Origin: Ruminococcus sp.
GTDB taxonomy: Bacteria > Bacillota > Clostridia > Lachnospirales > Lachnospiraceae
Reading direction: 5' to 3'
Length of the DNA stretch: 32,111 nucleotides
NCBI GenBank assembly: GCA_029258605.1
Contig: JARHYE010000003.1
Span: 1-32,111 of the forward strand
Position numbers and translations under genes: made by a program. Positions 5,236 through 25,609 of this stretch are shown here, in pieces (position 1 is the first letter of the stretch; each line of letters begins with the position of its first letter). The notes beneath the pieces are model-generated. The model was not told the DNA's origin. It made no database searches and saw only the letters and a program-made list of their open reading frames with translations.

Positions 5236-6852
5236 CTACCGTGTCAAATAGCGAACCTCAAATGTGTCCAATGTAATTGCTTTATTAAATAAACTGCCTT
5301 GCGCATAATCACATCCCAGTTCTTTTAATACATTCAACTGATCTTGTGTCTCTATGTCAGATGCAATTACATATGCGCCCATCTGGTGACACACATCAAT
5401 AACTGCTTTTGCAACAATCTGATTATGATTATTTCCAACAATATTTGTAATAAGACTCTTATCCAACTTCAGTCCATCAAATTTCATAATTGTAAGAATC
5501 GAGAAACTAGACTCCTTTGCCCCAAAATGGTCTAAAATGACTCTGATATTTTCTTTTCGAATCTTATTGCCTGTTTCTGATAGCATCTCTTGATTCATAT
5601 TTGTATAAGATTCAGAAACTTCTACCTCAAGGTATTCGCATGGAACATGGTATTGGTTCACAATCTCAAGCATTTTCTTTGTAAAATCTTCTTGTTGAAG
5701 TGTTGAACTAGATAAATTCACTGATATAGATACCATTTCTTTTCCTTGCTGTTCCCACTTTTGGAGCGTCTTGCACACTTGTTCAAACACATACAAATCC
5801 AAAAAATGAGAAAGTTTTGTCTCTTCCAGTAAGGTCATGTATCTTTGAGGATTCATCACTCCAAGATCCGGATGATGATAACGCACAACCGCCTCTGCTC
5901 CAACAACTTCTTCTGTTACAACATCCATTTTCGGAATAAGGCATACAATAAAGCGTCCTGCTTCTATATCATCCAAAAGATCCTGCTTAATCACAGGTTC
6001 ATGATGACCTTTTTTTCGATTTTTATAGTACTTACGCTTCTCCTCACGCATCATGTCTTCTGCATGTGACACCAGATCATTCATACTAATCTCTACCTTT
6101 TGCCATGCATACCCCATAGATACCAATCCCAAACTGATGTTATCTAGTTTATTGTGGGTATCATTTACGTTATGTACAAACTGTTCATAGGTAATATTTT
6201 CCATAATAACCAGATATTCATCTCCTGTAAGACGAAAGACCATGGCTCCTTTAAAATACTCCTCTAAAACCTCTCCTACACGGGTTACGATCTCATCCCC
6301 GTAGTTTCTTCCAAATTCTTTATTAAAATTTTTAAGCCCATTAATATCTACAGACAATGCCCCCGCTGATTTTAATTCTTCTTGCTTTACCTCCTCAATA
6401 TAAGCCACAAAGCTATTTCTATTAAGAAGTCCTGTCAGATTATCGTGGTAACTTAAATATTGTTGCTGCATCTGTGTCTTTTGTAAAATAATAGCCTCTG
6501 AAATATATGGGAGCACTGCTCGCATAAGGGATAATTCACATCCTCCTTTATGCACCCCTACCACTGCAAGCACAGCAGTGACTTCTTCATTCAAAGGTCG
6601 AAAGATGCTATAATCCGCTTCCGTTGTATCCGTAATTTCCTGTTGGAGCCATCTTGGATACTGCTCTGGCTCTAGCATTTTTACTTTTTCTCTCTGCCAT
6701 GGTATATTTTGTGCACACCATTCATAGATCGTAAGAATCTCATCTGCATCTTTTTCTATATAGTATACGTATTCTGAATCGTAGTAATCGCGTATGGTAC
6801 TCAATACTTCGTTCATAATTTCTATAATCGAACGTTGTTCATACTTCTCCAT
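5236..6852 (-). CDS. GGDEF/EAL bidomain protein with degenerate signature motifs
   Basis: LSYHDNLTGLLNR..FRLTGDEYLVIM (GGDEF-like) and AEAVVRYHHPDLG..SVNLSS..LEVEVSES..VILDHFGAKESS (EAL-like). Confidence 0.87.
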   Translation of the reverse strand: MEKYEQRSIIEIMNEVLSTIRDYYDSEYVYYIEKDADEILTIYEWCAQNIPWQREKVKMLEPEQYPRWLQQEITDTTEADYSIFRPLNEEVTAVLAVVGVHKGGCELSLMRAVLPYISEAIILQKTQMQQQYLSYHDNLTGLLNRNSFVAYIEEVKQEELKSAGALSVDINGLKNFNKEFGRNYGDEIVTRVGEVLEEYFKGAMVFRLTGDEYLVIMENITYEQFVHNVNDTHNKLDNISLGLVSMGYAWQKVEISMNDLVSHAEDMMREEKRKYYKNRKKGHHEPVIKQDLLDDIEAGRFIVCLIPKMDVVTEEVVGAEAVVRYHHPDLGVMNPQRYMTLLEETKLSHFLDLYVFEQVCKTLQKWEQQGKEMVSISVNLSSSTLQQEDFTKKMLEIVNQYHVPCEYLEVEVSESYTNMNQEMLSETGNKIRKENIRVILDHFGAKESSFSILTIMKFDGLKLDKSLITNIVGNNHNQIVAKAVIDVCHQMGAYVIASDIETQDQLNVLKELGCDYAQGSLFNKAITLDTFEVRYLTR

Positions 6853-12547: not shown

Positions 12548-14482
12548 CTAAAATTCAAATACCGCAACTCCATAGCCTGGGAGAGAATAGGCAAATGAAT
12601 ATGGCTTTCCATCGCATTCTTGCTTTTCTGCTTTGTAAACCATCGGACGTTCTTCGCCACTTCCGCCATATTTCGCTTCGTCACTATTTAAGACTAATTT
12701 GTACTGCTTTTTGCGCGGCACACCTACACGATAATCTGATCGCTCTACCGGTGTAAAGTTACACACAAATAACAAATTTTTCTTATCATTTTTTGAATGT
12801 CTGACAAAACTAAAAATACTACGGAATGTATCATCTTTGTTGATCCATTCAAACCCTTCTGGCTCATGGTCTAATTCATAGAGTGCTTTGTTTTTCTTAT
12901 AGAGATGTAGAAGGTCTTTAAAAAACAACTGTAGCTGTTGATGAGACTGTTCTGCAAGCAAAAACCAATCCAACTCTCTTTCCTCGCTCCATTCTCGTAG
13001 CTGTCCAAAGTCTTGTCCCATAAACAACAATTTCTTTCCTGGATGCCCAATCATGTAAGCATATCCAACTTTTAAATTGGCAATTTTATCAAATCCAACT
13101 CCTGGCATTTTATTTACCATGGAACATTTTAAATGGACCACTTCATCGTGAGATAATACAAGAACATAATTCTCACTATATGCATACTCCATAGAAAAAG
13201 CCATTTGATAATGAGCATTTTTGCGGAACAGAGGGTCTAATTTCATATATTCGGTAAAATCATGCATCCATCCCATATTCCATTTTAGACTAAATCCAAG
13301 TCCTCCCTCTTCTGGAGCACCGGTTACTTTTGGCCACGCGGTTGACTCTTCTGCTATCATCATAGCTCCTTTATTTCTTTCAAGAACTACGGAATTAAGA
13401 TGTTTAAAGAACTCAATGGCTTCAAGATTCTGATTGCCACCATATTTATTGGCAATCCACTGTCCATCCTGCTTGCCATAATCAAGATAAAGCATAGATG
13501 CAACCGCATCTACTCTAAGTCCATCAATGTGATAATTTTCAATCCAAAATAGAGCATTTGCAATTAGGAAATTCTGAACTTCTGGTTTTCCATAATCAAA
13601 AATCTTGGTTCCCCAGTCTGGATGCTCTCCTTTTTTCGGATCTGCGTATTCATAAATTGGTGTTCCATCAAATTCTGCCAATCCATGGGCATCTTTTGGA
13701 AAATGAGCTGGAACCCAATCTAAAATGACTCCAATTTTATTCTTATGCAAATAATTTATCATGTATGCAAAATCTTCTGGTGTTCCATATCTTGATGTAG
13801 GCGCATAATAGCCAGTCACCTGATATCCCCAGGATCCATCATATGGGTGCTCAAGCATCCCCATCAACTCAATATGGGTATATCCCATTTCTTTTACATA
13901 TTTTGTAATTGCTTTGGCAAATTCACGATATGTATAAAATCCTTCATTCTCACGACCTGGATGTCTCATCCAAGATCCCAAATGAACTTCATAGATAGAA
14001 AGTGGATTTTTTTCCATATCCCATGTTTCTCGTGCAGTCATCCACTGCTGATCTGACCATTTTAAATCAGAAATATCCGTAATGATTGATGCAGTTCCTG
14101 GACGAAGCTCCGCATAGTTTGCATAAGGATCTGCCTTAAAAATGCGTTTACCCTGCATCGTTTCGATACAAAACTTATATAATTGCCCTTCCTTTGCCTC
14201 TTTTATAAAGCAGGTATAAACACCTGTAGGTTCCTGGCGATCCATATAATTTTTTTCGAAATCCCAGTCATTGAACTCCCCAACTACAGAAACTCGTCTC
14301 GCATTTGGAGCCCATACTGAAAAATAAATTCCAGTTACTCCCTTTACCGTTGCTTTGTGAGCGCCAAGTTTATTATAAATCTTATAATGTGTTCCCTGAC
14401 CAAACAGATAATGATCAAGTTCACCAAATTCATAAGGCTGATATTTCTTTTGTACGGTTTTTTTATTTCCCATAAAGCCCAC
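12548..14482 (-). CDS. glgB: 1,4-alpha-glucan branching enzyme
   Basis: CBM48 + GH13: YEVHLGSW, GVILDWVPAHFPKD, DGLRVDAVASMLYLDYG, IAEESTAWP, VLSHDEVVH. Confidence 0.95.
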   Translation of the reverse strand: MGFMGNKKTVQKKYQPYEFGELDHYLFGQGTHYKIYNKLGAHKATVKGVTGIYFSVWAPNARRVSVVGEFNDWDFEKNYMDRQEPTGVYTCFIKEAKEGQLYKFCIETMQGKRIFKADPYANYAELRPGTASIITDISDLKWSDQQWMTARETWDMEKNPLSIYEVHLGSWMRHPGRENEGFYTYREFAKAITKYVKEMGYTHIELMGMLEHPYDGSWGYQVTGYYAPTSRYGTPEDFAYMINYLHKNKIGVILDWVPAHFPKDAHGLAEFDGTPIYEYADPKKGEHPDWGTKIFDYGKPEVQNFLIANALFWIENYHIDGLRVDAVASMLYLDYGKQDGQWIANKYGGNQNLEAIEFFKHLNSVVLERNKGAMMIAEESTAWPKVTGAPEEGGLGFSLKWNMGWMHDFTEYMKLDPLFRKNAHYQMAFSMEYAYSENYVLVLSHDEVVHLKCSMVNKMPGVGFDKIANLKVGYAYMIGHPGKKLLFMGQDFGQLREWSEERELDWFLLAEQSHQQLQLFFKDLLHLYKKNKALYELDHEPEGFEWINKDDTFRSIFSFVRHSKNDKKNLLFVCNFTPVERSDYRVGVPRKKQYKLVLNSDEAKYGGSGEERPMVYKAEKQECDGKPYSFAYSLPGYGVAVFEF

Positions 14483-14595: not shown

Positions 14596-14641
14596 AAAAA
14601 GACAGCCTGTTTCGCAGCGAACCGCGTGAAACAAACTGTCT
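14596..14641 (-). terminator. Terminator downstream of the 1163-aa AAA+ gene
   Basis: Minus strand AGACAGTTTGTTTC-ACGCGGTTCGCTGC-GAAACAGGCTGTCT-TTTTAT. Confidence 0.8.
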
Positions 14642-14655
14642 AAACTTTACAAAAA

Positions 14656-17600
14656 TTAAATATTAAAATCTTTTTCTGATAGAATTACTCGATCCTTATC
14701 ATCTGTGTTTTTTCCAAAAACTTTTTTAACAAGTTTCTTCGCAGATGTTTTCTTGGAATGTCCAATTGCCTCATCCATCACTTCTTTGACTTCTGCAATT
14801 GTAACGGAATGATCTTCTCGCTGCAAAGCATCAATTCTGCTATACAATGCAAGAATTCCCATTTCATCAATTCGATATCCATTCTCCTGTGCATAGGTCT
14901 GACCAAATGTAACAAGTTCATCATTAATAAAAATTGGAACTTCCAAACGGCTTGTGAATTTTCTTCTAAATTCTCTGTTAGATGCAAGAAGTCTTTCTAG
15001 AGGTTTTCTTTGCTCTTCTAACACAATCAGAAGTTCACCGGTATCTCTTTCCATCGCCTTATTAAGACGTGCAACTGTCTTTTCATTCATTTTGGACGCT
15101 TTCTCTATGATCAATGCACCGCCATAGAGCTTATCACAAATTTCACCGATTTTCTTTTTATTAAGAGATTCTCCTGTTACAATTGCAACTTTTCCTTTTC
15201 GAACGTTTCTTTGCTTTTGAATTGCCTTTACAACATCAACCGCAAGAACTGTTTTTCCATTTCCTTTATTTCCAATGATTAAAAGGTTGCCTGTCTTAGA
15301 AGTACCTCTACGATTTGTACAGTTGCGCTCTTGCTCGAGAACATCCACAAGCTGCTCACTCATTCCTCTTACTGGAACAAAATATGAAAACAGTTTTTTC
15401 TGTTCCTCTGTAAGTCCTGCTCTTGTACCAATCTCGCTTTGTGTTTCCAAATCATAACGACCATGTACTAAAAATCCAGTACCTGACATAGACAATGCAT
15501 CAGAAATTTCATTCATTGGAAGTGGTGCTGTTTTTCCAGTTGCAATTAATTTTGCCGTTTCTTTTCTACTAAGAGGCGTACTCTTTGATAATAAGCTAAA
15601 TTCCTCTTCGTCTGGAACTTCTCTGTCATCTATTTCATTTTGATTTTCTGGATTCACTCTAAATTCCGCTTCAAATCCAGCTTGAATATCTTCATAATCT
15701 TCTTCAAATTCTTCATCTAGATATCCGTGTTGATCGTCATCATCGAACATATCGGTAAGTTCTTCTTCGTCTTCTAGTTCTTCTTCAAAAGCATCTGCAA
15801 GTTCTTCCTCTTCTTCCAGCTCTTCTTCAAAGGTATCGGTAAGCTCTTCCTCGTCATCTAGCTCTTCTTCAAAGGTATCGGCAAGCTCTTCCTCGTCGTC
15901 TAGTTCTTCTTCAAAGGTATCGGTAAGCTCTTCCTCATCCTCAAACTCTTCTTCCAACGTATCGACTAGTTCTTCTTCTTCATCTAGCTCTTCTTCAAAA
16001 GCATCCTCAAACTCTTCTTCAAAAGCATCTGCAAGTTCTTCCTCTTCTTCTAGTTCTTCTCCTAGAGAATCTTCCAGTTCTTCTTCCTGCTCGTTGCCTT
16101 CCAAAGCATCTGTGAAATCTTCTTCTTCGTTAAGGAATGCCTCAATGTCATCTATACGAAGTTGCTGTGTAACCTCGCCCATGTTTTCATGTGGTTCCTC
16201 TTCTACTTTTTCTGTTTTTGGAATTTCTTTTTCCTCAACAACTTGTGGCTGAACACCTTCAATTTCATCAATTAGTCTTTGAATTTCTTCTGGTAGTATC
16301 GGAGTTGTATCCTTCTTGATTTTTTCCATTTCAACCTCTTCCATCCCATCTAAACTTTCATTTTCAGACTCGTCTAATAACTTTTCTAGTGATAATTCTT
16401 CTATTTCTCCTAGTATTTCTTCAGATTTCTCTAAGAAGTCCTCGGATTCGTCCAGTGTTTCTGCTTCCTCTTCCGATAACTCCAAGATTTCTTCTGGCAA
16501 CTCTGCCGTCTCATCTAAGAGATCTTCTATTCCACTTGGCATCTCTACGGTTTCATCTAACAGTTCTGTTATTCCACTCGGCATTTCCACTGTTTCATCT
16601 AGTATTTCTTCAGATTCCTCTAAGAAGTCTTCGGATTCCTCTAAGAAGTCTTCGGATTCGTCCAAGATTTCTGCTTCCTCTTCTGACAACTCCAAAATCT
16701 CTTCCGGTAGCTCTGCTGTCTCGTCTGACAGTTCTTCTACTTCTTCCGGTAGCTCTGCTGTCTCATCTGACAATTCTTCTACTTCTTCCGGTAGCTCTGC
16801 TGTCTCATCTGACAATTCTTCTACTTCTTCTGGTAGCTCTGCTGTCTCATCTGACAGTTCTTCTACTTCTTCTGGTAGTTCTGCTGTCTCATCTGACAAC
16901 TCCTCCGTATGATGTGACACCTCGGTCTCAAGTGGCTCTGCCTTAAGTTCTTCTAAATCAGGATCAAACCGAGTAAACTTTCTATCCCTTTTTGCTGTGA
17001 TCTCACTCACAAGATTCACGTCAATGACAGACTCTATTTCTTCTATAGCAGTTTCTAGTTCCGGAAGTTCATCAACAAAATTGTCCTTGTCGGACTCTTG
17101 CGCTGGTCCTTCTACCACACCTTCACTCTGCTCTTCTTGTTGCATGGTTTCTTCTAATTCTGGATTCAGCAATACTTTTATGGCATCTTCCAGTTTCATC
17201 GTTTTTGCAATCCCTTTCTTTTCCAAGCGTTGTAAAATGTCCTCTATGGATTCTTTTTTCTCTAGTTTTTTTTCAGGGACTTTTTTCTTTTCTTCCTTTA
17301 CCGGCTCTTCTGCAGGTTCTTCTTTTTCCTTTTCTTCCTTCACGGGTACTGGTTCTGGTTTTTTTAGTGTTATCTCTGAAAAATCACACCTTGTTTTCCC
17401 GTCAGAAGATTGGGATTCCTCTTTTACTTTATTTACTACTTGCTCTTTTTCTTTCTGATACTTTTCTACGTTTGGAATTCGATCTGTTACAGATGCCGGC
17501 TTTTCATATCTGTGATCGTATTTTTCCTGCTGAGAAGGGGTAAGTGGCTTATACTGCATTTTTAATTCCATAGCTTTATAAACATACTTTCCTTCACTAA

Positions 17601-18147
17601 ACCAAAGGATAAGATCGTCACATTCTTCCAGACATTCTGCTGTCATCCCAGCTTCCTGATATCTCTTTGCCAGTTCATATGCCCATTCTTCAATATATTC
17701 TGCCTTTTTAAATTCACAAAGAGCTTCTATCTGCTGCTCAATCGGTGCACGTTTTGCTCTTAAAATTTTATATTTCAAAATATACTGTGCAGGGTCTTTT
17801 GGCGCTACTCGAAGGAACTCATCATAATAGTCAATGGCTTCTGCCACATCACCTGTCCTTAAAGAAAGCATACACAAACGGTATAAAACTTTTCTACTTC
17901 CTTCCGTACGATGAAGGGCTAAATGCAAAACCTCATAACTTTTTTGATAATTTCCATTTCTTTCATAAATATCACTGACTGTCATCAGCATTGTGCTATT
18001 TCTAACTCTTCTCCAATCGATGGTATCCGCAATTTCAGCTGCTCTGTTATACGCTCCATTTTCCATAAGTTCAAGCATCTCTTCTGTCTTTAACTTATAT
18101 TCGTATTTATCCATTGCATTCACCTCATAATAATGATTACTATCCAA
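14656..18147 (-). CDS. TPR-like N-terminus, long acidic tandem-repeat linker, CbbX/EccA-like AAA+ C-terminus
   Basis: TPR-like helices (NGNYQKSYEVLHLALHRTEG..GDVAEAIDYYDEFLRVAPKDPAQY), 14-residue acidic repeats, Walker A GNKGNGKT, ASNREFRRKF sensor/Arg region. Confidence 0.8.
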   Translation of the reverse strand: MDSNHYYEVNAMDKYEYKLKTEEMLELMENGAYNRAAEIADTIDWRRVRNSTMLMTVSDIYERNGNYQKSYEVLHLALHRTEGSRKVLYRLCMLSLRTGDVAEAIDYYDEFLRVAPKDPAQYILKYKILRAKRAPIEQQIEALCEFKKAEYIEEWAYELAKRYQEAGMTAECLEECDDLILWFSEGKYVYKAMELKMQYKPLTPSQQEKYDHRYEKPASVTDRIPNVEKYQKEKEQVVNKVKEESQSSDGKTRCDFSEITLKKPEPVPVKEEKEKEEPAEEPVKEEKKKVPEKKLEKKESIEDILQRLEKKGIAKTMKLEDAIKVLLNPELEETMQQEEQSEGVVEGPAQESDKDNFVDELPELETAIEEIESVIDVNLVSEITAKRDRKFTRFDPDLEELKAEPLETEVSHHTEELSDETAELPEEVEELSDETAELPEEVEELSDETAELPEEVEELSDETAELPEEVEELSDETAELPEEILELSEEEAEILDESEDFLEESEDFLEESEEILDETVEMPSGITELLDETVEMPSGIEDLLDETAELPEEILELSEEEAETLDESEDFLEKSEEILGEIEELSLEKLLDESENESLDGMEEVEMEKIKKDTTPILPEEIQRLIDEIEGVQPQVVEEKEIPKTEKVEEEPHENMGEVTQQLRIDDIEAFLNEEEDFTDALEGNEQEEELEDSLGEELEEEEELADAFEEEFEDAFEEELDEEEELVDTLEEEFEDEEELTDTFEEELDDEEELADTFEEELDDEEELTDTFEEELEEEEELADAFEEELEDEEELTDMFDDDDQHGYLDEEFEEDYEDIQAGFEAEFRVNPENQNEIDDREVPDEEEFSLLSKSTPLSRKETAKLIATGKTAPLPMNEISDALSMSGTGFLVHGRYDLETQSEIGTRAGLTEEQKKLFSYFVPVRGMSEQLVDVLEQERNCTNRRGTSKTGNLLIIGNKGNGKTVLAVDVVKAIQKQRNVRKGKVAIVTGESLNKKKIGEICDKLYGGALIIEKASKMNEKTVARLNKAMERDTGELLIVLEEQRKPLERLLASNREFRRKFTSRLEVPIFINDELVTFGQTYAQENGYRIDEMGILALYSRIDALQREDHSVTIAEVKEVMDEAIGHSKKTSAKKLVKKVFGKNTDDKDRVILSEKDFNI
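15746..16063 (-). repeat. In-frame 42-bp tandem repeat array B, encoding TFEEELDDEEELTD-type repeats
   Basis: Plus-strand unit AAGGTATCGGTAAGCTCTTCCTCGTCATCTAGCTCTTCTTCA at 15746, 15788, 15830, 15872, 15914, 15956, a short 24-bp unit at 15998, and 16022. Confidence 0.9.
16684..16893 (-). repeat. In-frame 42-bp tandem repeat array A, encoding DETAELPEEVEELS repeats
   Basis: Five units starting at 16684, 16726, 16768, 16810, 16852; plus-strand unit TGACAATTCTTCTACTTCTTCCGGTAGCTCTGCTGTCTCATC; degenerate units continue toward ~16420. Confidence 0.93.
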
Positions 18148-18252
18148 TTTATATTTTTGAGAATCTTCTCTTCAGTTTACCATAAGCACTGAACAATGTC
18201 AAAATTCTCTTGCCCAGCAGCTTCTTTCTCCCCTTTGCTACCGAAGCTGGTT

Positions 18253-20442: not shown

Positions 20443-20862
20443 TTATAGGTCAATGGTATCCAAATAGGAAATGTCTTCTAACAGAATCGTGGTATGGTCC
20501 TCCATGATAAGTTTGTGTCCAACTGTGTCAACTTTCTTGATCGTCCCTGTGACCGTAAGATATGTTCCTCCTTCTTTTTGCAAATCTTTCAGAAAATAGG
20601 TGATGGAAACTTGCTCCTTTTTTTGAGGATTACAAAGAATCTGTGACAATTTCAAATTCAATTGTTCTTTTTCTTCCTCTGACAGTTCTATTTTTCTTTG
20701 TGTAAGCCGTGCTGTTTCCTTAATGGCGTCATTGTGTCCGGTGAGCGCTGCAAAAGGTGCAAACTGCGCCGCCCTGTCATGCAATGACATCCGTGCATGA
20801 ACCTTAGAAACAGGATGTTTATAGTCAATCATATCTTGGTATTTTGTTTGCTTTTTTTCCAT
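20443..20862 (-). CDS. YolD-like protein
   Basis: [33 protein letters not shown]; directly downstream of the Y-family polymerase. Confidence 0.8.
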
Positions 20863-20870
20863 TTCTTCTC

Positions 20871-22343
20871 CTAAGCTTTGTGTCCGCCAATTTGTCTATT
20901 CCGCTCCTTTGCGGTAGCTCCTTCTTCAAAATTCATTCCTTTAAGTACTGCATTTTTCCCATACTTTCTTTTAATAGACAACATTGCCAGTTGCACCTTT
21001 TTTTCTTTTTGTCGAATCTGCTCTTCTTCTTCCTTTTGTTTCTGAAGTGCTTCATAATCCGTAAAAAGATCAAGTTGCTCAAAAGCTTCTTTCCTATCTA
21101 TGTCTGATTCTTGTTTCACGTGATTGACAGAAATATTAATTCGTCGTATCAATAAATTTCGGTCCACAATCCGGTCATACAAATCACAGATTACTTTCAT
21201 GATTTCCCGTGTTGATGACGTATATTCTTTCATAGATTCTGTCCCATGCGCATGTTTTGGGATCTGTCTTCCATAATGATCCGTTTTAATCTCTCCTTGA
21301 AACATGCTTTTTTTCACAGGATCCAATAAATTTTCTATATCGTATCCAACGGTCAATACAATCTGATCTGTAACAAGACCTTTCTCTACCAAATCAAGGG
21401 AAAGTGTATCCGCCATTTCTTTTACAACAAGCCTTGCTTTTTCAAAGGTATAAGGACACGACAGGACCTGACCACTTCCAATACTTTTTGTCTGTGGTTT
21501 ATAACATTTAATATCCGTCATGGTACAAGGTTCCCATCCCCATGCATGATCAATTAACAATTCTGCATTGATCCCAAACATTTTATATAACAATTCTTCA
21601 TTGTAGAAATCTAGCGGATCACCAATAGAGCAACGTGCGATATCTCCCATGGTGTAAAGACCACAAGCTTCTAATTTTTTTGCATACCCTTTTCCTACTC
21701 TCCAGAAATCCGTCAGTGGTCTGTGATCCCACAACAATTCCCGATAGGACCGTTCATCTAACTGCGCAATCCGCACTCCATCTTTATCTGGCTGTATTTT
21801 TTTTGCCACAACATCCATTGCGACCTTACATAAATATAGATTGGTTCCGATTCCCGCGGTTGCCGTAATGCCCGTAGTCCTTAACACCTCTTGAATCATC
21901 GCTGCTGCCAGTTCCTTTGGGGTCATCTGATACGTTACAAGATAATCGGTAACATCCATAAACACTTCATCTATGGAATATACATGAATATCCTCTGGGG
22001 CAATATACTTAAGATAAATATCATAGATCCTGGTGCTGTATTCCATATACAAGGACATCCTAGGCGGCACTGCAATGTACGTAAGGGGTGGTTCTTTTGA
22101 ATGATTCATTCTCCTTAATGCATTGATCTTCTCAACTTGCTGAACCACTTCAAACAACCTTGGTCGCCCAGAAATCCCTTGTTTTTTCAATGCTGGGGAT
22201 ACGGCAAGACATATGGTCTTTTGCGTGCGCGACGCATCCGCAACAACAAGATTTGTTGTCAACGGATCCAGGTCCCTTTCCACACACTCCACAGATGCAT
22301 AAAAAGATTTCAAATCAATTGCAACATAACTTCTGCTCGACAA
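20871..22343 (-). CDS. Y-family DNA polymerase (UvrX/DinB/UmuC-like); probable TTG start
   Basis: YVAIDLKSFYASVECVERDLDPL, VYSIDEVFMDVT, TATAGIGTNLYLCKVAMD; AAGGAGAGG SD ~9 nt before TTG. Confidence 0.93.
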   Translation of the reverse strand: MSSRSYVAIDLKSFYASVECVERDLDPLTTNLVVADASRTQKTICLAVSPALKKQGISGRPRLFEVVQQVEKINALRRMNHSKEPPLTYIAVPPRMSLYMEYSTRIYDIYLKYIAPEDIHVYSIDEVFMDVTDYLVTYQMTPKELAAAMIQEVLRTTGITATAGIGTNLYLCKVAMDVVAKKIQPDKDGVRIAQLDERSYRELLWDHRPLTDFWRVGKGYAKKLEACGLYTMGDIARCSIGDPLDFYNEELLYKMFGINAELLIDHAWGWEPCTMTDIKCYKPQTKSIGSGQVLSCPYTFEKARLVVKEMADTLSLDLVEKGLVTDQIVLTVGYDIENLLDPVKKSMFQGEIKTDHYGRQIPKHAHGTESMKEYTSSTREIMKVICDLYDRIVDRNLLIRRINISVNHVKQESDIDRKEAFEQLDLFTDYEALQKQKEEEEQIRQKEKKVQLAMLSIKRKYGKNAVLKGMNFEEGATAKERNRQIGGHKA

Positions 22344-23440: not shown

Positions 23441-23478
23441 AAAGGGGTCCGACATTCTTGCCAGACCCCCTCTTTTTT
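23441..23478. terminator. Hairpin terminator between the MMPL partner gene and hydrolase gene
   Basis: GGGGTC-CGACATTCTTGCCA-GACCCC with T-rich tract on + and a short TTTG on -. Confidence 0.6.
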
Positions 23479-25609
23479 ATTTTGCTTCAATTTTTTCTGT
23501 ACGGTAAATAATTTTAACTGGCTGGTCTTCTCCTTTGGATACATTAACCATTCCTTTTAACCTTGTAGCTAATTTACCAAGATCACCATCTACTGCACCT
23601 ACTAACTTTTTAACCGCTTTTTCATTAAATTCCCCAAGACCATCTGACAACTTCACGGATCCATCTTTTAATTGTGCTACTCCATCAATTAATGCTGGAG
23701 CTGCTCCCTTTAATTGATTGATTCCAGCGTTCAGTTCTTTTGTTCCGCCTAACAGCGCAGAAGTTCCATTTTTAAGTGTCAACACACCTGCATTTAAATC
23801 AGCTGCCCCTTGTGCTGCAGTTGCCACTCCATTTGTATAGGATACAAGTCCTAAATAAAAACTATTATAACCATCTAATGCAGCCTTTAATTTGATCACA
23901 GCTTTCGCTCCTTCTGATGCTGCTTCCATTTTTTGTTTTACTTCATCAGATGCCATCGCTTCTGAAATTTTTTGCTGCACTTGAATTTCGATATTTTGTG
24001 CAATGATCGCCTGCACTTCTGCTGTCTGCATTTGCTGATTAATTGTTGTTGCAACAAGATCTTTTGTGCCTGCTTCCGCCATCTTTCCTTCTACAAGACC
24101 ACGGATCGTTCCTTGAATGTCTTCACTGTTCATCTGTGCTTCAATCGTTGCTACAACTTTTTCCTGCACTTCCTGAGGAACCTTTCCTGCTTGAACGGCC
24201 TGATCGTACTGTTCTTTTGTCATTGGACTTCCAATCGCCGCTGTGACAGTCTGAATTACTTTCTCTTCTACCTGTGCTTTTACGCCTTCTGTTACTTTTG
24301 CTTGTACTTCTTGCTGAACTTTCGCTGTTACCTGAGCAGTTACTTGTTCTGCAACAACTTTCTTTACACCCTCTTCAATCAATGGACGTTTTTCTTCCAC
24401 TTTTGCTGTTACCATTTTTAAGGCCTGATCATAAACTGCATTCTGATCCAATGATCCAATCACTCCATTTAATACATCCGCATAATTTCCAATGCTAAGC
24501 TGTGGAACAGAAAGTCCTGCTTTTTCGATTTCTGCTTGTGCTGTAGAAAGCAATGTATTAAATACTTGCTGTGCGCCTCCTGTTAGCGCTTCATTATTTG
24601 ATGCCAATGTTGACAACCCTGTAGAAAGCTGTGAGGAACCGTCTAATAATTGTCCAGCACCGCCGTCCAATGTGGAAACTCCGTTTTCTAATTGCGCACT
24701 TCCAAGTGCTAGCTGCCCAATTCCATTGGAAAGTTCTCCTGTTTTTTCGTTCAATGTATGAAGTCCATCTGCTAATTTATTGGAACCATCCATTAATTGA
24801 CCCATGGCACTTGTCATCTGATCTAGAGAATCTTTTAATCCATTTGCACTATTAAATTTAGAGGAATCCAATTCTCCAAAGATTTCGTTTGTAGCAATGG
24901 TCATAGTCTCCATCATCTTAAATCCTTGTGCATCTGCTTCGATTTCAACATAATCAGGAAGTTCCAATTTATCCTCAGAAATCTTAAGATTTTCCTGAAT
25001 TCCTGGTAATGCAATTCCTGCAACAACTGTACGATCTCCGTCATCAACAAGTTTACCATTTGTTACTTTTACATTAGAAAATACATCATTCTCCAAAATC
25101 ATTCCTGTGAGCATCACATAAGGAACAAACATCTGCTCTTTTTTTCCGTCTACAATACAAGTTTTTTTCTCTTGATTTTTGTAGTCAATACGGATTTTTA
25201 CATGACCATCTTTTCCTGCAAGATCTGCTGGGCTTATTTTCTTTCCATTCAATTCATAACTGATTTCAAGCTGAACCGGTATGTTTTTTTGTATTCCCAA
25301 AAGATTCACATCATCCTTTGGAATGGCATCCCCGATCATTTTTCTCATCTCATCGCTTACGATAATCTTGTTTACCGCACCATCGGAATTTGTAAACACA
25401 TACAATACTTCCTCATTGGATGTCGCATTCTTACTTTCTTTTACTGCCTTTGTCTCTGTATTTTTAACAATATTTCTTTCTGCTTTGATATCATTATTTT
25501 TTGCATAAGTTGTAACTCCGCTTCCGCCAGCTACCATTGTGGCGCAAAGAACAACTGATACTGCAGATTTCCATTTCTTATTTCTATTCATATTCTTATG
25601 CCTCCTCAT
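23477..25609 (-). CDS. Secreted/anchored protein with YhgE/Pip-like Gly-Leu repeats, MMPL-linked (start may be 25591)
   Basis: Signal peptide-like N-terminus; repeats LSNGIGQLALGSAQLENGVSTLDGGAGQLLDGSSQL; adjacent to MMPL gene. Confidence 0.75.
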   Translation of the reverse strand: MRRHKNMNRNKKWKSAVSVVLCATMVAGGSGVTTYAKNNDIKAERNIVKNTETKAVKESKNATSNEEVLYVFTNSDGAVNKIIVSDEMRKMIGDAIPKDDVNLLGIQKNIPVQLEISYELNGKKISPADLAGKDGHVKIRIDYKNQEKKTCIVDGKKEQMFVPYVMLTGMILENDVFSNVKVTNGKLVDDGDRTVVAGIALPGIQENLKISEDKLELPDYVEIEADAQGFKMMETMTIATNEIFGELDSSKFNSANGLKDSLDQMTSAMGQLMDGSNKLADGLHTLNEKTGELSNGIGQLALGSAQLENGVSTLDGGAGQLLDGSSQLSTGLSTLASNNEALTGGAQQVFNTLLSTAQAEIEKAGLSVPQLSIGNYADVLNGVIGSLDQNAVYDQALKMVTAKVEEKRPLIEEGVKKVVAEQVTAQVTAKVQQEVQAKVTEGVKAQVEEKVIQTVTAAIGSPMTKEQYDQAVQAGKVPQEVQEKVVATIEAQMNSEDIQGTIRGLVEGKMAEAGTKDLVATTINQQMQTAEVQAIIAQNIEIQVQQKISEAMASDEVKQKMEAASEGAKAVIKLKAALDGYNSFYLGLVSYTNGVATAAQGAADLNAGVLTLKNGTSALLGGTKELNAGINQLKGAAPALIDGVAQLKDGSVKLSDGLGEFNEKAVKKLVGAVDGDLGKLATRLKGMVNVSKGEDQPVKIIYRTEKIEAK

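What the first reader, a model, noticed from the sequence alone, without database searches (positions are those of the whole stretch)
14656..18147. TPR / acidic-repeat / CbbX-EccA-like AAA+ protein
Seen: TPR-like N-terminus, about 600 residues of Glu/Asp-rich sequence, then an AAA+ C-terminus whose ASNREFRRKF..VPIF segment parallels CbbX/SpoVK (ESNPGLRSRF..). Knowledge: TPR plus a CbbX-type AAA+ is the architecture of the type VII secretion chaperone EccA. Inference: this is a divergent EccA/CbbX-like scaffold with a long anionic spacer; no partner system is recognisable in the window.
Basis: partly seen in the sequence, partly recalled or inferred. Interest (0 to 1): 0.68.

Follow-up and report, generated by a model that had tools for sequence, protein, structure and literature searches.

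The report
Catalytically dead TPR–AAA scaffold of Lachnospiraceae
This gene makes a large protein that almost every sampled gut bacterium of the family Lachnospiraceae carries once: a protein-docking domain joined by a long acidic tether to an ATP-motor-like domain whose catalytic parts have decayed, and in early-branching relatives it sits right behind a DNA-organising machine, so it is probably a structural hub and not the secretion chaperone first proposed.

Summary
The start is ATG 18114, not TTG 18147, giving 1152 aa. Residues 1-199 are a TPR superhelix (AF2 pLDDT 96); 200-900 are an acidic linker with 14-aa tandem repeats; 901-1152 are a CbbX-clade AAA+ fold (pLDDT 90; the four best PDB matches are all CbbX).

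The EccA reading fails. In 126 orthologues the pore-loop segment is deleted (125/126), the Walker B glutamate survives in 13, both nucleotide motifs in 3, and the clade's sensor-1 GY signature in none. WXG100 proteins occur in 8 of 36 family genomes, never on the target's contig. It is a degenerate AAA+ with no known family.

The N-domain occurs in 283 of 299 family genomes, normally once, with only weak TPR matches in other families. The linker carries two conserved short motifs (48 and 67 of 129; shuffles ~0). In early-branching genera the gene directly follows jetA-jetB-jetC (Wadjet III/Mks-type SMC) without the JetD nuclease: 28 of 37 such jetC loci have it downstream, 0 of 37 have JetD, whereas 22 of 24 canonical Wadjet III loci have JetD within about 3.5 kb.

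Most likely it is a non-catalytic scaffold, possibly for chromosome organisation. The fold and degeneration are shown; the function is inferred.

The parts
14659..18114 (-). Whole coding sequence, 1152 aa, ATG start with GAGGTG ribosome-binding site
   Evidence: single copy in the window's genome
17518..18114 (-). N-terminal TPR superhelix (residues 1-199), the most conserved part, with YELA..Y..C..CD..ILWF..G.YV..A core
   Evidence: Pfam TPR_2; A1 mean column identity 59% over 28 rows; AF2 pLDDT 95.9; Foldseek TPR/MamA
15415..17517 (-). Long acidic, mostly low-complexity linker (residues 200-900)
   Evidence: composition; length varies in relatives, median about 470 aa
16700..16899 (-). Tandem 42-bp/14-aa acidic repeat array 1 (ELSDETAELPEEVE x ~5)
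   Evidence: TRF 96% matches; not present in this form in the same-genus orthologue
15750..16017 (-). Tandem 42-bp/14-aa acidic repeat array 2 (EEELTDTFEEELDD-like x ~6)
   Evidence: TRF 80% matches
16129..16179 (-). Conserved linker island GEVTQQLRIDDIEAFLN (residues 646-662), variant of the family's QIxGQMxIxEVLxEWE motif
14659..15414 (-). C-terminal degenerate AAA+ domain of the CbbX/SpoVK/EccA clade (residues 901-1152), ending in the conserved ILxEKDF tail
15250..15273 (-). Walker A GNKGNGKT (residues 948-955), intact here but lost in about 40% of orthologues
15100..15123 (-). Walker B position GGALIIEK (residues 998-1005): DE of CbbX replaced by EK, catalytic Glu absent
14598..14640 (-). 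Intrinsic terminator after the gene, separating it from glgB
   Evidence: sequence; hairpin -23.7 kcal/mol, z -4.8
18174..18202 (-). Promoter-like site TTGACA-17-TAAACT with TG extension, just upstream of the gene (consensus match only)
12548..14482 (-). Neighbour: glgB, 1,4-alpha-glucan branching enzyme, directly downstream in 62 of 130 loci

Best explanation
It is a housekeeping scaffold (hub) protein particular to the family Lachnospiraceae. The TPR superhelix docks one or more partners. The acidic, largely disordered linker keeps the ends apart and presents short helical docking motifs. The CbbX-derived C-terminal domain serves as an assembly or binding module, at most a nucleotide-binding switch, and not as a threading ATPase. 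Ancestrally it was expressed with dnaX-ybaB-recR and a JetD-less JetABC (Mks-type) SMC complex, so its most likely cellular role is organising or anchoring a chromosome-associated machine. It was kept after most lineages lost the SMC genes. Shown here: architecture, folds, motif decay, near-universality, linkage. Inferred: scaffold action, oligomerisation, chromosome-related role.
For: Folds. Degeneration against CbbX and five intact in-family paralogues: pore-loop segment gap in 125/126, Walker B Glu in 13/126, sensor-1 GY in 0/126, Walker A plus Glu in 3/126. Conserved although catalytically decayed: 283/299 family genomes, 236/245 high quality, normally one copy. Linker motifs NLQ 48/129 and GQ 67/129 against about 0 in shuffles, always in the same order (43/43). 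Chromosomal linkage: recR-to-target median gap 23 bp in 19 loci, jetC-to-target in 9 of 130 loci; 28 of 37 group-A jetC loci have the target downstream on the same strand and contig, none with JetD. On the tree jet-linked loci are scattered near the base, and JetC and target trees are compatible in three groupings. In one genome the two halves are separate adjacent genes, TPR 809 aa and AAA 1011 aa.
Against: No experiment and no partner structure. About 60% of orthologues, including the window's, keep Walker A, so nucleotide use is not excluded. Most genera have the target without JetABC, so JetABC cannot be an obligate partner. The commonest neighbour is glgB, not a DNA gene.
Confidence: 0.5

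Rival explanations
1. It is a working EccA/CbbX/SpoVK-type AAA+ chaperone: the TPR recruits a dedicated client and the hexameric AAA+ ring pulls on it, for example for type VII secretion.
For: Same higher-order fold; TPR plus CbbX-clade AAA+ is the EccA arrangement (PMC10659427); intact Walker A here.
Against: Pore-loop-1 segment missing in 125/126, catalytic Glu missing in 113/126, sensor GY missing in all, arginine fingers mostly lost. WXG100 in only 8 of 36 family genomes, not found in the own or same-genus genome, never on the target's contig. EccA equivalog score 27 against a cut-off of 467.
Confidence: 0.06
2. It is a scaffold or regulator of glycogen metabolism: it gathers GlgB/GlgP/GH13 enzymes, and the acidic tether surrounds the granule.
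For: glgB directly downstream in 62/130 loci (median gap 31 bp), glgP or GH13 beside it in other lineages; glycogen synthase glgA in all 45 genomes tested.
Against: A strong terminator separates it from glgB in the window; the recR-linked clade (24 loci) shows no glucan gene in the labelled neighbourhood; no carbohydrate-binding module found. glgA being everywhere gives no discrimination.
Confidence: 0.17
3. It is a dedicated fourth subunit or regulator of the JetD-less JetABC complex that took over JetD's place, for example with its acidic linker acting as a DNA mimic on the SMC DNA-binding site.
For: jetA-jetB-jetC-target order in 28/37 JetD-less loci against JetD beside 22/24 canonical ones; JetC and target trees compatible in three clades; MksBEF of Pseudomonas is thought to have arisen by loss of JetD (PMC10586767); MukBEF is inhibited by a viral DNA mimic (PMC7617805, title and abstract only).
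Against: About 240 of 283 target-bearing genomes have no such JetC; the linker's composition varies and one orthologue has only 7% acidic residues; contact is not shown.
Confidence: 0.2
4. It is a polar or nucleoid condensate organiser analogous to PopZ (acidic disordered linker plus an oligomerising C-domain plus a docking domain).
For: Same physical layout; acidic linker of variable length with conserved docking motifs.
Against: No sequence kinship to PopZ is known to me and none was tested; localisation and phase behaviour unknown.
Confidence: 0.15

Closest known systems
CbbX (red-type Rubisco activase, TIGR02880, PDB 3zuh/3syk)
   Same: Nearest AAA+ fold and sequence relative; Asn four before the arginine finger kept in the window protein
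   Different: Pore-loop segment, Walker B Glu, GY sensor and second arginine finger missing; no Rubisco context; has a TPR domain and acidic linker
EccA (type VII secretion AAA+ chaperone, TIGR03922)
   Same: N-terminal TPR and C-terminal CbbX-clade AAA+
   Different: Far below the family cut-off, catalytically degenerate, no ESX/WXG100 linkage, a linker of hundreds of acidic residues
SpoVK (stage V sporulation AAA+, TIGR02881) and SpoVK-like paralogues in the same family
   Same: Same AAA+ clade
   Different: Paralogues in the same bacterial family keep Walker A/B, pore aromatic, GY and arginine fingers; this one does not
Wadjet type III JetABC / MksBEF (PADLOC JetA3/B3/C3)
   Same: Genomic partner in early-branching genera, JetD-less like MksBEF
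   Different: The target protein itself is not a Jet subunit and has no Toprim/JetD similarity
PopZ-type polar scaffold (PMC9512792)
   Same: Acidic disordered linker with an assembly domain, by analogy only
   Different: No homology known; TPR and AAA-like ends

Membership tests
CbbX/SpoVK/EccA AAA+ clade (criteria of PMC10659427) | AAA+ fold nearest to CbbX | tested here: met
CbbX/SpoVK/EccA AAA+ clade (criteria of PMC10659427) | Tyr in sensor-1 as part of a GY signature | tested here: not met
   0 of 126 orthologues; EQ in the window
CbbX/SpoVK/EccA AAA+ clade (criteria of PMC10659427) | Asn four residues before the first arginine finger | tested here: inconclusive
   present in the window and in 62 of 126 orthologues
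CbbX/SpoVK/EccA AAA+ clade (criteria of PMC10659427) | Second arginine finger (sensor-2) | tested here: not met
   Lys or other at the aligned CbbX/paralogue Arg positions in nearly all; 11 of 126 have Arg at one of them
Active AAA+ ATPase/unfoldase | Walker A, Walker B Glu and pore-loop aromatic | tested here: not met
   Walker A 75/126, Glu 13/126, pore segment gap 125/126
EccA (TIGR03922) | Score above the equivalog cut-off of 466.65 bits | tested here: not met
   27.3 bits
EccA (TIGR03922) | Linkage to a type VII (ESX/WXG100) system | tested here: not met
   no WXG100 found in own or same-genus genome, 8/36 in the family, never on the target's contig
EccA (TIGR03922) | N-terminal TPR domain | tested here: met
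Wadjet/Mks subunit | Similarity to JetA, JetB, JetC or JetD | tested here: not met
   PADLOC gives only a low-complexity hit of the acidic linker to JetC3
Wadjet/Mks subunit | Physical contact with JetABC | not testable with these tools
   only gene linkage available
PopZ-like condensate scaffold | Polar localisation and self-assembly | not testable with these tools
   needs microscopy

The most novel reading that the evidence does not exclude
In the ancestor of the Lachnospiraceae a type III Wadjet defence complex lost its JetD nuclease and became a chromosomal condensin-like machine, with this TPR/acidic/pseudo-AAA protein as its dedicated fourth partner. The partner then became a family-wide, near-universal nucleoid scaffold that outlived the SMC genes in most lineages.
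Probability: 0.2. Interest if true: 0.8.

Novelty: new variant of a known kind. Interest (0 to 1): 0.55.

Why it matters
A protein present once in about 95% of sampled Lachnospiraceae genomes, a dominant family of the human gut, matches no curated family over its full length. A whole family has kept a CbbX-clade AAA+ domain while losing its catalytic and threading parts, which makes it a natural test of what such domains do without hydrolysis. The link to a JetD-less Wadjet/Mks locus offers a testable case of a defence SMC turned to housekeeping outside Pseudomonas.

Tried and rejected
No relatives on plasmids or viral contigs (single-protein pattern query, so a weak negative), so a mobile-element origin was dropped. 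Rfam gives only tRNA-Lys in the window. A 2473-aa orthologue (G386, L301) is an artefact of masked N stretches and was discarded. The NCBIfam SMC and PADLOC JetC hits of the acidic linker are low-complexity matches. A weak VRR_NUC Pfam hit (residues 130-200) is below cut-off and lies inside the TPR helices. The alignment A1 was too diverse for a genome contigs pattern search, solved with A3. Literature searches found no description of this protein; the library is open-access only.

Full report
WHAT IS THERE. The reading frame lies on the minus strand of the window; the plus strand is closed by stops. The best start is ATG at 18114, with GAGGTG six bases before it, giving 1152 residues (P0001). 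The TTG start of the finding adds 11 residues that orthologues lack. A promoter-like site at 18202-18174 (consensus only) and a strong terminator hairpin at about 14640-14598 (-23.7 kcal/mol, z -4.8) suggest a single-gene transcript here.

DOMAINS. Residues 1-199 match TPR models and, with 27 relatives, fold with pLDDT 95.9 into helix pairs matching TPR superhelices and MamA. Residues 200-900 are acidic, 40-52% Glu+Asp at 401-550 and 50-64% at about 651-800 with almost no Lys/Arg, and hold two 42-bp tandem arrays. Residues 901-1152 fold with pLDDT 90.3; the four best PDB matches are all CbbX (4e-12 to 1.5e-11), followed by p97 and RuvB at about 3e-8 to 1e-7. Sequence profiles agree: CbbX 7.6e-12, SpoVK 3.7e-7, EccA 1.3e-6, all far below equivalog cut-offs.

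THE AAA+ DOMAIN IS DEGENERATE. I aligned 126 orthologous C-domains with CbbX and five SpoVK-like paralogues from the same family. The paralogues keep every motif (one arginine-finger position is Lys in three). The orthologues have a gap where pore loop 1 with its aromatic residue lies (125/126); the Walker B Asp is Glu in 106, the catalytic Glu is present in 13, and the GY of sensor 1 in none. Walker A GK(S/T) is intact in 75, and only 3 have both Walker A and the catalytic Glu. In the window Walker A is intact (GNKGNGKT) but Walker B reads IIEK. PMC10659427 lists three characters of the clade: GY in sensor 1, Asn four before the first arginine finger, and the second arginine finger. So the domain descends from this clade but does not look like a working threading ATPase.

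DISTRIBUTION. The N-domain profile finds it in 283 of 299 genomes of the window's family (236 of 245 high-quality), nearly always once. In an order-wide sample all 22 same-family genomes are positive, while outside the family only five weak TPR-level hits appear. The 80 closest named genomes are Lachnospiraceae-type (Muricomes, Faecalicatena, Mediterraneibacter, Hespellia, Dorea). No plasmid or viral copies were found. The window's own genome is 58% complete, with one copy.

LINKER. Against the same-genus orthologue the TPR part is 95% and the AAA part 98% identical, while the protein is 112 residues shorter, all in the linker, with conserved islands between variable repeats. Across 129 linkers two short motifs recur: (T/S)xNLQx(E/A)L in 48 and GQ(M/L)x(I/F)x(E/D)(I/V)(L/M) in 67, against about zero in shuffled linkers, always in that order (43/43). 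The shuffle test ignores relatedness, but the motifs occur in every context group. In the window the second survives as VTQQLRIDDIEAF. They look like docking helices (inference). In one genome the protein is split into two adjacent genes, 809-aa TPR and 1011-aa AAA.

NEIGHBOURS. In 130 loci (almost all from different genera) the target is followed by glgB in 62 (median gap 31 bp) and preceded by recR in 19 (median 23 bp, usually dnaX-ybaB-recR-target); ksgA, glgP or jetC flank it in others. JetA/B/C here are strong PADLOC Wadjet type III hits (690, 331 and 1670 bits). Among 299 genomes, 37 loci carry a jetC of this group (990 bits or more). In 28 of them the target lies downstream on the same strand and contig, within 0.4 kb in most and under 8 kb in all; in none is JetD on that contig. 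By contrast 22 of 24 more distant Wadjet III jetC loci have JetD within about 3.5 kb. The nine unlinked ones have diverged, missing or fragmentary targets. On the N-domain tree, jet-linked loci are scattered at early branches (7 changes), including as sister to the glgB clade that holds the window. JetC and target trees are compatible in three groupings, two of them supported in the target tree. The simplest reading is an ancestral jetABC-target cluster with repeated loss of jetABC; repeated insertion beside the target is less likely but not excluded. PMC10586767 notes that MksBEF of P. [quoted passage not shown]

FUNCTION. Type VII secretion is not supported. A glycogen role is possible because of glgB, and glgA is present in all 45 genomes tested, but the window has a terminator between the two genes and the recR-linked clade shows no glucan gene in the labelled neighbourhood. 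My best reading is a non-catalytic scaffold, ancestrally tied to DNA-metabolism and SMC genes. Folds, motif decay, distribution and linkage are shown; scaffolding, oligomerisation and a chromosome role are inferred.

Noticed in passing
G009, G016, G018, G015, G026 and 32 other family genomes; loci L036, L049, L054, L056, L058, L244, L252, L264, L290: A JetD-less Wadjet type III JetABC group, in some genera within a dnaX-ybaB-recR operon, which PADLOC-style annotation would call Wadjet; possibly a domesticated condensin.
   Followed up: partly
window 5236-6852 (-): GGDEF-EAL protein whose signature motifs read TGDEY and EAV, so it may be a catalytically altered c-di-GMP protein.
   Followed up: no
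window 20443-22343 (-): YolD-like gene directly after a Y-family DNA polymerase (IMS), a SOS-type pair, beside the FGGY sugar kinase and VanZ genes.
   Followed up: partly
L060 9642-15114: Natural fission of the target into a TPR gene and an AAA gene 7 bp apart.
   Followed up: partly
L264 2303-2872 and L244 976-1326: Small Cys-rich repeat ORF (GFCFCKGELVECSTGRVQDC) just upstream of jetA in two genera.
   Followed up: no
window 23477-25609 (-): 710-aa protein rich in 'LxDGxxxLxxG' repeats next to an MMPL-like gene, with no Pfam hit.
   Followed up: no
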